Assembly: GCA_003563255.1 (NCBI GenBank)
Contig: PWSL01000275.1
Location: forward strand, 1 to 9,246
Direction of reading: 5' to 3'
Length of the DNA stretch: 9,246 bases
DNA from: Desulfonatronospira sp.
GTDB lineage: Bacteria; Desulfobacterota; Desulfovibrionia; Desulfovibrionales; Desulfonatronovibrionaceae
The position numbers and the translations under genes are program-made. Of this stretch, positions 1 through 9,246 are shown in pieces; within the stretch, counting starts at the first letter, position 1; each line of letters begins with the position of its first letter. A model generated the notes under the pieces. That model made no database searches and was not told where the DNA came from. It was given only the letters and a program-made list of their open reading frames with translations.

Positions 1-143
1 CACTACAGCGAAACTTATAAAATACAGTATGGTATCTCAGTTGGGGACAGGCACTTTTGCCGATAGAAAACTGTCAACTGTTCAAAAATCCCGGCGGCAA
101 AAGAGCCAGTCCCCGGAGGTCAATCATAAGTTTCGCTGTAGTG
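1..143. repeat. Palindromic MITE/REP-like element, copy A
   Basis: Seen directly: perfect 18-bp terminal inverted repeats, CACTACAGCGAAACTTAT (1-18) and its complement (126-143). Inside lies a second paired segment: GGGGACAGGCAC (43-54) against GAGCCAGTCCCC (103-114), paired except for two A-A mismatches, then a perfect 8-bp stem TTTTGCCG (55-62) / CGGCAAAA (95-102) and a loop of about 32 nt. The whole unit can fold as one long hairpin. It is followed by TTAT (144-147). The element has the same termini, internal stem and size as copy C at 2731-2872. The GGGGACAGGCAC/GAGCCAGTCCCC signature resembles REP-like sequences tied to IS200/IS605-type (RAYT) transposases, but that link is recalled, not shown here. 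The left flank lies outside the window, so the element could extend further. Confidence 0.85.
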
Positions 144-215
144 TTATTTACAGGCATTAAAATAAGTGCGGGGAGAGCCAGTCCCCATGCCACATGCAAA
201 TGGCTAAACTGTTAC
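144..215. repeat. Partial palindromic element, right half (copy B, D-type)
   Basis: The 25 bases at 175-199 are identical to 8753-8777 in element D: the core arm GAGCCAGTCCCC followed by ATGCCACATGCAA. The next segment, GGCTAAACTGTTAC (202-215), resembles the D right terminus GCGCTAAACAGATAC. No matching left half is visible: upstream lies element A. The bases just before the core (164-174, AAGTGCGGGGA) would be the descending arm of the inner stem, so the missing ascending arm should read TCCCCGCACTT. The copy is therefore either a truncated relic or is split by the insertion of element A. Confidence 0.75.
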
Positions 216-2695: not shown

Positions 2696-2730
2696 AGTTT
2701 GAACTCCTTATTTAGTGTTTAAATTTTTAT

Positions 2731-2872
2731 CACTACAGCAACACTTTGTGTTAATTTTTGCCACGGCCACAGGGGACAGGCACTTTTGCCGAACTCAAAC
2801 CGTAAAATGGCCGGACTCCCTGCGGCAAAAGAGCCAGTCCCCTTCGAGTTCAAATAAAGTGTCGCTGTAGTG
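2731..2872. repeat. Palindromic MITE/REP-like element, copy C
   Basis: Terminal inverted repeats CACTACAGCAACACTTT (2731-2747) and AAAGTGTCGCTGTAGTG (2856-2872) match with one mismatch. The internal arm GGGGACAGGCAC (2772-2783) faces GAGCCAGTCCCC (2831-2842) with two A-A mismatches, then TTTTGCCG (2784-2791) pairs perfectly with CGGCAAAA (2823-2830). Length (142 against 143) and spacing of core to termini match copy A, whereas loop and spacer sequences have diverged. TTAT lies directly on both sides (2727-2730 and 2873-2876), which may be a 4-bp target duplication. The element sits between the stop of the universal stress protein gene and the Shine-Dalgarno sequence of the transporter gene, so it would lie within any shared transcript. 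Confidence 0.85.
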
Positions 2873-2880
2873 TTATAGGG

Positions 2881-8633: not shown

Positions 8634-8642
8634 GACGGTCTG
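8634..8642. repeat. Left 9-bp target-site duplication of element D
   Basis: GACGGTCTG lies immediately left of the element D terminus and is repeated exactly at 8794-8802 immediately right of the other terminus. An exact 9-mer in precisely these two places is very unlikely by chance and marks a staggered-cut insertion. Confidence 0.85.
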
Positions 8643-8793
8643 GTATCTGTTTAGCGCTTTTAAGGAAAGCAGGGGACAGGCACTCCGGGACCCACTTGAG
8701 CATCATTTTGTGCTAAAAATTTCTTATTTTTTGGGACAAGCGGGTCCCGGAAGAGCCAGTCCCCATGCCACATGCAATGCGCTAAACAGATAC
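8643..8793. mobile_element. MITE-like palindromic element D with TIRs and target duplication
   Basis: A 151-bp unit with perfect 15-bp terminal inverted repeats: GTATCTGTTTAGCGC (8643-8657) and GCGCTAAACAGATAC (8779-8793). Inside, GGGGACAGGCAC (8672-8683) faces GAGCCAGTCCCC (8753-8764) with the same two A-A mismatches as in A and C. The inner stem TCCGGGACCC (8684-8693) / GGGTCCCGGA (8742-8751) continues, after one mismatch, with CTTG/CAAG. The core lies 29 nt from either end. There is no coding capacity, so it must be moved in trans; no transposase is in the window. It sits between the TPR and YciI genes, in the upstream region of the TPR gene. Confidence 0.9.
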
Positions 8794-8802
8794 GACGGTC
8801 TG
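8794..8802. repeat. Right 9-bp target-site duplication of element D
   Basis: GACGGTCTG, identical to 8634-8642 and directly adjoining the right terminus. Removing the element and one copy would restore an uninterrupted AAACGG-GACGGTCTG-TACATA target. Confidence 0.85.
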
Positions 8803-9145: not shown

Positions 9146-9235
9146 TTTTCAATAATCTTTATACTTGCAACAATGTTGAGCATATCATATAGAATCTTTG
9201 AAGGGTAACCATTCAGGGGGCAGATACCGGCCAGG

Positions 9236-9246
9236 GGGACAGTCCC
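9236..9246. repeat. Possible start of another repeat element, cut by the window end
   Basis: GGGGACAGTCCC-like sequence ends the window (GGGGGACAGTCCC from 9234). It shares GGGGACAG with the core arm of the other elements, then differs. Without the following sequence I cannot tell whether it is a true copy. Confidence 0.35.

What the first reader, a model, noticed from the sequence alone, without database searches (positions are those of the whole stretch)
43..114. Conserved core with two fixed A-A mismatches shared by elements with unrelated ends
In A, C and D the core arms read GGGGACAGGCAC / GAGCCAGTCCCC, always with the same two A-A mismatches inside GC pairs. The inner stem differs by type (TTTTGCCG/CGGCAAAA in A and C; TCCGGGACCC/GGGTCCCGGA in D), as do the outer ends, yet each pairs with its own partner. 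Constant mismatched core with covarying inner and outer stems suggests selection for a folded DNA or RNA structure recognised at the core, reused by different mobile families.
Basis: partly seen in the sequence, partly recalled or inferred. Interest (0 to 1): 0.75.

Follow-up and report, generated by a model that had tools for sequence, protein, structure and literature searches.

The report
Mismatched hairpin core shared by transposons
Hundreds of tiny mobile DNA elements with unrelated ends in this bacterial genome carry a hairpin with swappable inner part whose core nearly always keeps the same two A-A mismatches, a core that also turns up with quite different stems in unrelated contigs of a virus collection, so it is likely recognised in folded form, perhaps by a single-strand DNA transposase.

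Summary
The window (contig C62 of a 3.5-Mb draft genome) holds three complete 142-151-bp elements and one half. The core right arm occurs 534 times in the genome. Two sets of ends are separate transposition systems: CACTACAGCG ends with 4-bp NTAN duplications (25 of 41) and GTATCTGTTTAGC ends with 8-bp duplications (14 of 36, one more of 9 bp). Central cassettes move between them: 57-nt and 56-nt cassettes are 100% identical in elements with different ends. In 104 normally built elements the mismatches are A-A in 92 and 102. In IMG/VR contigs the exact doubly mismatched core (loop 14-43) occurs in 14 contigs with unrelated stems, against 0 for two perfectly paired versions; with the four mismatch bases free, 10 of 18 distinct hairpins are A-A/A-A. 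Recognition as folded DNA is inferred. A RAYT-like Y1 transposase is the likeliest partner (its elements begin with GGGACAG, 24 of 29), but none found is flanked by the whole core. Against: compensatory change inside this genome is weak, orientation ignores GC skew, and one mismatch can be read as the relic of a CAG repeat.

The parts
1..143 (+). Element A (alpha ends): 18-bp perfect terminal inverted repeat 1-18/126-143 around the core hairpin; contig starts at its first base, so its left target duplication cannot be seen
   Evidence: (I6)
43..54 (+). Core left arm of A, GGGGACAGGCAC
55..62 (+). Inner stem left arm of A, TTTTGCCG
   Evidence: I7
95..102 (+). Inner stem right arm of A, CGGCAAAA
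   Evidence: I7
103..114 (+). Core right arm of A, GAGCCAGTCCCC
166..215 (+). Half element B: inner C-type right arm end, core right arm 175-186, gamma right end to CTAAACTGTTAC
   Evidence: (D4)
2727..2730 (+). Left copy of 4-bp target duplication TTAT of element C
2731..2872 (+). Element C (beta ends CACTACAGC.../...GCTGTAGTG), core arms 2772-2783 and 2831-2842, inner stem 2784-2791/2823-2830
   Evidence: (I1, I5)
2873..2876 (+). Right copy of TTAT duplication of element C
8634..8642 (+). Left copy of 9-bp target duplication GACGGTCTG of element D
8643..8793 (+). Element D (gamma ends GTATCTGTTTAGCGC.../...GCGCTAAACAGATAC), core arms 8672-8683 and 8753-8764, inner stem 8684-8693/8742-8751
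   Evidence: (I12, I25)
8794..8802 (+). Right copy of GACGGTCTG duplication of element D
9205..9246 (+). Left end of a further element type (zeta, GTAACCATTCAGGGGG...GGGGGACAGTCCC) cut by the contig end; zeta arms hold the related palindrome GGGGACAGTCCCC

Best explanation
The core is a portable hairpin (GGGGAC-A-GGC-A-C ... G-A-GCC-A-GTCCCC) that sits at the centre of several families of miniature transposons with unrelated ends and is likely recognised as folded single-stranded DNA, probably by a Y1 (RAYT-like) HUH transposase. Shown: at least two sets of ends with different target duplications (4 bp NTAN; 8-9 bp) carry the same core, and central cassettes between the core arms are exchanged between the families. 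The two A-A mismatches are nearly invariant, and the identical doubly mismatched core recurs with unrelated inner and outer stems in unrelated contigs. Inferred: the folded strand, told apart from its complement by A-A versus T-T mismatches, is the recognised form. Y1 proteins are the best candidate because their own elements begin with GGGACAG, the start of the core. The miniature transposons would then multiply the hairpin by ordinary DDE transposition of their ends (the transposases are inferred from the duplications and were not found), and breaks or template switches at the palindrome would swap cassettes and make fold-back chimeras.
For: Copy number: 534 exact right arms in the genome, reversed control 0. 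Ends, in the 889 kb examined: target duplications 25 of 41 (4 bp) and 14 of 36 (8 bp, one more of 9 bp); flanks shifted by 1 to 20 bases gave no full match. All 40 CACTACAG end pairs and 31 of 35 gamma end pairs within 260 bp carry both core arms, with up to 3 mismatches per arm allowed. Modularity: outer left and right types agree in 100 of 105 (shuffle maximum 52) and inner in 118 of 127 (shuffle maximum 56), while outer and inner types combine (alpha with C, K and T; beta with C and T; gamma with C and G). Cassettes of 57 and 56 nt are 100% identical between alpha and gamma elements, and one loop cluster of 21 spans gamma 12, alpha 6, beta 3. Mismatches: 92 and 102 of 104 normal elements; absent in the seven fold-back chimeras, each of which joins ends of two families. 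Elsewhere: 14 IMG/VR contigs with the exact core at loop 14-43 against 0 and 0 for two perfectly paired versions at the same loop lengths, and 2 more contigs at loop 44-72 (no paired control at that length). With the mismatch bases free, 10 of 18 distinct hairpins are AA/AA. Of all 13 distinct AA/AA hairpins, 12 have an outer stem of at least 4 bp, the stems differing in sequence. Y1: GGGACAG lies 82-120 nt before 24 of 29 distinct Y1 starts, is the commonest 7-mer there, and is in 0 of 29 coding controls.
Against: No Y1 gene found is flanked by the full core, and profile search found no Y1 in the IMG/VR loci that carry it. Order-mates with 9-12 matches to this Y1 protein (G018, G020, G025), and G012 with 18, have no exact right arm. 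Orientation of the core shows no association with contig GC skew (Fisher p = 0.55, 103 elements), whereas lagging-strand HUH movement might give one. Compensatory change inside the genome is weak. In the free scan 5 of 18 distinct hairpins are fully paired at both positions, though with other bases than A-T (or, in one, T-A at only one position) throughout. The mismatch at position 7 can be read as the two copies of a CAG direct repeat around the cassette: alpha elements with the bare palindrome GGGGACAGTCCCC exist (L279, L284). Mismatch positions are somewhat more variable than most paired positions (position 7: A-A in 122 of 144). The bases next to the core are not the GTAG or CGTC tags of known REPs.
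Confidence: 0.5

Rival explanations
1. Inherited relic: the core is simply the sequence shared by descent among miniature transposons. Cassettes swap by template switching or gene conversion through the 12-nt arms, and the mismatches are relics (a CAG direct repeat around the cassette, and cassette tips GCAC/GAGC), with no recognition of a folded form.
For: Bare GGGGACAGTCCCC at the centre of two alpha elements of G006 and of a short zeta element (L082) fits cassette gain or loss between CAG repeats. Fold-back chimeras, tandem arrays (L038, L046) and core-less alpha remnants (L277, L278) show palindrome-driven rearrangement. Within-genome covariation is weak.
Against: The same 24 core bases, mismatches included, recur in unrelated contigs with no other sequence common to all, while two perfectly paired versions gave no hit there. 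In five element combinations the core arms average 0.97-1.00 identity against 0.70-0.92 for the loops, although the copies were found through the core.
Confidence: 0.3
2. The core is a binding site for a double-strand DNA-binding factor (host or accessory protein) needed by the DDE transposases of several end families; folding is incidental.
For: Nearly every end pair within 260 bp carries both arms (40 of 40 and 31 of 35), in families with different target duplications.
Against: A protein reading double-stranded arms would not need the two arms to differ at the same two positions. A core-less alpha remnant still between TTAT repeats exists (L277). In the IMG/VR contigs the core has no such transposon ends in view. 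The tested accessory candidate DruA is not linked to the core.
Confidence: 0.12
3. The hairpin works as RNA (terminator, processing site or regulator) and is kept because it makes insertions harmless.
For: Very stable folds on both strands (DNA parameters); the window copies lie between the likely genes.
Against: No Rfam family matches at gathering score. Loops and inner stems differ widely. Some distant copies lie inside open reading frames (L293, L295).
Confidence: 0.08

Closest known systems
REP/BIME sequences and REPtrons (RAYT, TnpAREP)
   Same: High-copy imperfect palindromes; a Y1 HUH transposase family in the same genome with a sub-threshold NCBIfam match to REP-associated tyrosine transposases
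   Different: No GTAG/GTGG or CGTC tag at the foot; not found flanking a Y1 gene; lodged inside miniature transposons that make target duplications; the core recurs in distant contigs, whereas PMC6006769 (passages read) describes REPs as species-specific in sequence
[quoted passage not shown]
   Same: 142-151 bp in the window, no gene, terminal inverted repeats, target duplications, hundreds of copies
   Different: Sets of ends with different duplications share and exchange one central hairpin; no autonomous parent found. A review of prokaryotic MITEs, PMC10969869 (passages read), has no occurrence of mosaic, chimeric, modular or exchange, but tells of pneumococcal repeats inserting into one another
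BOX elements of streptococci (boxA-boxB-boxC; in S. suis also boxE-boxF around the same boxB)
   Same: Modular repeats in which different outer modules surround the same inner module (PMC3049150, passages read)
   Different: Here the shared part is a mismatched palindromic core, with both inner and outer modules exchanged and target duplications of two lengths
TIMEs (Tn3-derived miniature elements) with mosaic derivatives
   Same: Miniature elements that gain different central modules (PMC4133298, passages read)
   Different: In the passages read, TIMEs keep one family of ends and gain a recombination module or other DNA; no shared hairpin core is described there

Membership tests
MITE | Short, gene-less, terminal inverted repeats | tested here: met
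MITE | Target-site duplications of fixed length per end family | tested here: met
   25 of 41 (4 bp); 14 of 36 (8 bp) plus one of 9 bp; shifted flanks gave no full match
MITE | Autonomous parent with the same ends | tested here: inconclusive
   none in the 889 kb examined, about 25% of the genome; in G006 no two alpha/beta-type ends among the 74 listed lie 0.5-6 kb apart facing each other, read by eye; the IS66-DruA element in L090 has its own ends and is a nested insertion
REP / RAYT system | High-copy extragenic imperfect palindromes | tested here: met
   534 exact right arms; paired arms and folds; intergenic position seen for the window copies only
REP / RAYT system | GTAG/GTGG or CGTC tag at the hairpin foot | tested here: not met
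   feet read AATT, CACC, AGCA or TTGT before GGGG; tag definition from PMC6006769 (passages) and the title and abstract start of PMC3733652 (listing)
REP / RAYT system | Y1 transposase gene flanked by the repeat | tested here: not met
   only GGGACAG is shared (24 of 29 upstream regions); full core absent at the Y1 flanks examined, except a beta half element 3' of the Y1 gene in L037
REP / RAYT system | Cleavage of the folded repeat by the Y1 protein | not testable with these tools
   needs protein
IS200/IS605 | HUH motif and catalytic tyrosine in the partner protein | tested here: met
   N60-H61-x-H63 and Y155 invariant in eight aligned Y1 proteins; that Y155 is the catalytic residue is recalled
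Rfam RNA family | Match at gathering score | tested here: not met
   0 matches in the window

The most novel reading that the evidence does not exclude
A horizontally spread hairpin that is recognised through two fixed A-A mismatches and nests in the tips of other palindromes: miniature transposons in this genome, other inverted repeats elsewhere. It in turn accepts new hairpins at its own tip, and so forms a portable single-strand DNA docking site that links HUH and DDE mobile elements across distant bacteria.
Probability: 0.25. Interest if true: 0.85.

Novelty: new variant of a known kind. Interest (0 to 1): 0.66.

Why it matters
REP-type repeats are described as species-specific in sequence (PMC6006769, passages read). 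A core whose mismatches are held constant in unrelated contigs while every paired stem around it changes would mean that a mispaired DNA shape is what is recognised and passed on. It also gives a concrete case in which one central hairpin serves several transposon families with unrelated ends, so the same cassette can be followed from one family to another and the role of mismatches in strand choice can be tested at the bench.

Tried and rejected
IS66-DruA element as parent of the gamma ends: first taken as parent because L055/L090 carries core arms at both ends. Rejected: a 99.6% identical copy in G016 (L207) lacks core and gamma ends, and in L090 it lies in a gamma loop between 8-bp repeats CAAAAACA (repeats read).

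DruA as the shared factor: three DruA matches in the genome, one beside a core only by that nested insertion. IS4-family gene in L037 as parent: its C terminus is cut by a gamma half element. IS630 (PF13358): no match. The IS66 and IS4 copies of G006 whose boundaries I compared have other ends.

Strong covariation in inner family C (59 double changes) was inflated by a shift between 3-C and 4-C variants; anchored, on 19 unique arm pairs, it is 5 against a shuffle mean of 1.9 and maximum of 7. An early note that a second core type lacks the mismatch was wrong: of the 11 printed copies, most still have A-A or, read on the other strand, T-T at position 7.

Y1 relatives in viral contigs: 72 stretches matched a pattern, none confirmed. 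Plasmids: no match to element A; only distant Y1 relatives under 60% identity in 11 records, flanks not examined. Text searches for the 12- and 13-mers gave three papers outside the field by title and abstract start. A broad search on MITEs and mosaics listed known MITE, REP and TIME papers, of which I read passages of four; two narrower searches listed three unrelated papers and none; further listings. No claim of absence in print is made beyond these searches.

Rows dropped: 11 of 155 places that could not be classified were left out of the 144. One of eight rows flagged as fold-back (L139) is cut by a contig end; 32 elements whose ends were not clear in that test have A-A in 29 (position 7) and 30 (position 11).

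Full report
What is in the window. Three complete elements (A 1-143, C 2731-2872, D 8643-8793) and one half (B, 166-215) share the core arms GGGGACAGGCAC and GAGCCAGTCCCC (B the right arm only). C is flanked by TTAT on both sides and D by GACGGTCTG. A starts at the first base of the contig, so its left flank is unknown. The genes around are ordinary: a PF03601 membrane protein, a universal stress protein, an SNF2 helicase, an HTH protein, a TPR protein and a YCII protein. No Rfam family matches.

How common it is. The window is contig C62 of a genome of 3.52 Mb in 532 contigs. AGCCAGTCCCC occurs 559 times against 2 for the reversed pattern; the full right arm occurs 534 times. Of the relatives searched, G006 has 79 copies, G010 129, G015 39 and G005 6. 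In all, 48 of 150 genomes had a match. One locus per genome was looked at for 30 of them: outside G000, G005, G006, G010 and G015 none has a left arm or paired stem beside the match, and these look like chance matches, mostly in coding DNA.

Structure. In 889 kb from 121 loci I found 155 places with both arms (up to 2 mismatches each), of which 144 could be classified. Three main end types occur. Alpha and beta have CACTACAGCG ends with 4-bp NTAN duplications (25 of 41). Gamma has GTATCTGTTTAGC ends with 8-bp duplications (14 of 36, one more of 9 bp). Shifting the flanks by 1 to 20 bases gave no full duplication. A fourth type, delta, is less well defined. Left and right ends agree in 100 of 105 elements, and inner left and right arms in 118 of 127, far above shuffles, but ends and inner types mix: alpha with C (18), T (10) and K (1); beta with T (17) and C (3); gamma with C (25) and G (17); delta only with K (4).

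Exchange of cassettes. Entire cassettes between the core arms are identical in elements with different ends: 57 of 57 nt in an alpha (L050) and a gamma (L051), and 56 of 56 in another pair (L122, L043). One loop cluster spans gamma (12), alpha (6) and beta (3); the other clusters of two or more keep to one end type. A 31-nt module is seen directly after the core right foot in 12 of 25 pattern matches by a strict rule. By my reading of the printed rows, 18 of the 25 are true copies, and 17 of these lie next to a recognisable right arm or GGGACAGTCCCC, in gamma, delta and other settings. So the points of exchange coincide with the edges of the core.

The mismatches in this genome. In 144 elements, position 7 is A-A in 122 and position 11 in 133. 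In 104 elements with a normal left and right half the numbers are 92 and 102. Seven fold-back chimeras built of two left or two right halves have none, and each joins ends of different families. Elements located through the inner stems alone give a similar picture: C 54 and 56 of 65, T 34 and 37 of 37, G 14 and 17 of 20, counted after requiring 9 of 12 matches per arm, which 65 of 79, 37 of 61 and 20 of 34 met; the printed remainder are contig ends, chance matches, nested copies and the second core type. Against a special role, mismatch positions are a little more variable than most paired ones, and position 7 can be read as the two copies of a CAG repeat: GGGGA-CAG-cassette-CAG-TCCCC, next to bare GGGGACAGTCCCC centres in two alpha elements of G006 and in a short zeta element. 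No bare centre with alpha, beta or gamma ends on both sides was found in the G000 loci. The same repeat, extended to GGGACAGTCCC, flanks the cassettes of a second type.

The same core elsewhere. A scan of the IMG/VR contigs with the exact arms found 14 contigs at loop 14-43; the two perfectly paired versions at that loop length found none. Two more contigs have it at loop 44-72, where no paired version was scanned. With the four mismatch bases free (loop 14-43), 22 contigs give 18 distinct hairpins: 10 are A-A/A-A and eight are other combinations, five of which are fully paired (three GGGGACAGGCCC/GGGCCTGTCCCC, one GGGGACAGGCGC/GCGCCTGTCCCC, one GGGGACCGGCTC/GAGCCGGTCCCC). Adding the three long-loop hairpins, there are 13 distinct A-A/A-A hairpins. 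GC of their loci is 48-68% and the inner parts differ; the outer stems differ too, though some share a type (TGAATCA, CGACA), and 12 of 13 have at least 4 bp. By simple arithmetic (nine registers, 1 in 256 each) a 4-bp outer stem is expected in about 3.5% of hairpins by chance; no shuffle was run. Two of these loci carry the hairpin inside long open reading frames, and L293 also holds bare GGGGACAGTCCCC twice between similar ends. This is the main reason to prefer recognition of the core over simple descent.

The candidate enzyme. The genome has Y1 (HUH) genes with a sub-threshold match to REP-associated tyrosine transposases. Eight aligned proteins keep N-H-x-H and a conserved tyrosine. Their elements start with GGGACAG 82-120 nt before the gene in 24 of 29 distinct upstream regions, and in 0 of 29 coding controls; the five without it are four relatives of 27-47% identity (one with a masked upstream region) and one of 57%. 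The core begins with G-GGGACAG. That is the whole of the link: the full core does not flank the Y1 genes examined, no Y1 frame was found in the IMG/VR loci, relatives have the Y1 without the core, and core orientation does not follow contig GC skew (p = 0.55). I therefore rate the Y1 part as likely rather than shown.

Verdict. What it works like: a REP-type hairpin carried inside MITEs. Membership: it meets the MITE tests that could be made, with the parent unknown, and fails the tag and gene-flank tests of known REP/RAYT systems, so it is not filed as a REP. I call it a new variant of a known kind.

Noticed in passing
L250-L254 (G006): Y1 genes occur in clusters; the copies compared have a sharp left end at or a few bases before GGGACAG but right ends that vary between pairs.
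   Followed up: partly
L090:540-3161 (G000:C430): An IS66-family element with a DruA gene, nested in a gamma loop between CAAAAACA repeats; a 99.6% identical copy is in another genus (L207, G016) without the core.
   Followed up: yes
window 9205-9246; L051, L082: Zeta elements (GTAACCATTCAGGGG ends) carry GGGGACAGTCCCC or a near copy in their arms; a short form (L082) has it once at the centre.
   Followed up: partly
L120, L131, L153, L265-L269: A 31-nt module CTCCGGGCTGTATGCCTCCGGGCAGGAAGCC sits directly after the core right foot in several end families and two genera.
   Followed up: partly
L293:2723-4453; L295:6232-7836: Core hairpins lie inside long open reading frames of IMG/VR contigs (576 and 534 aa) without breaking them, which recalls palindromic elements inserted in coding genes (the comparison is recalled).
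   Followed up: no
L038:1917-2164; L046:8341-8730: Head-to-tail tandem arrays of three and four gamma elements with shortened joints.
   Followed up: no
L172 (G000:C353): A 606-aa frame joins a DruA-like region to a further part that looks like a transposase, without any core nearby; the further part was not identified by a search.
   Followed up: no
L277, L278 (G006): Alpha elements that have lost core and cassette, one still between TTAT repeats.
   Followed up: partly
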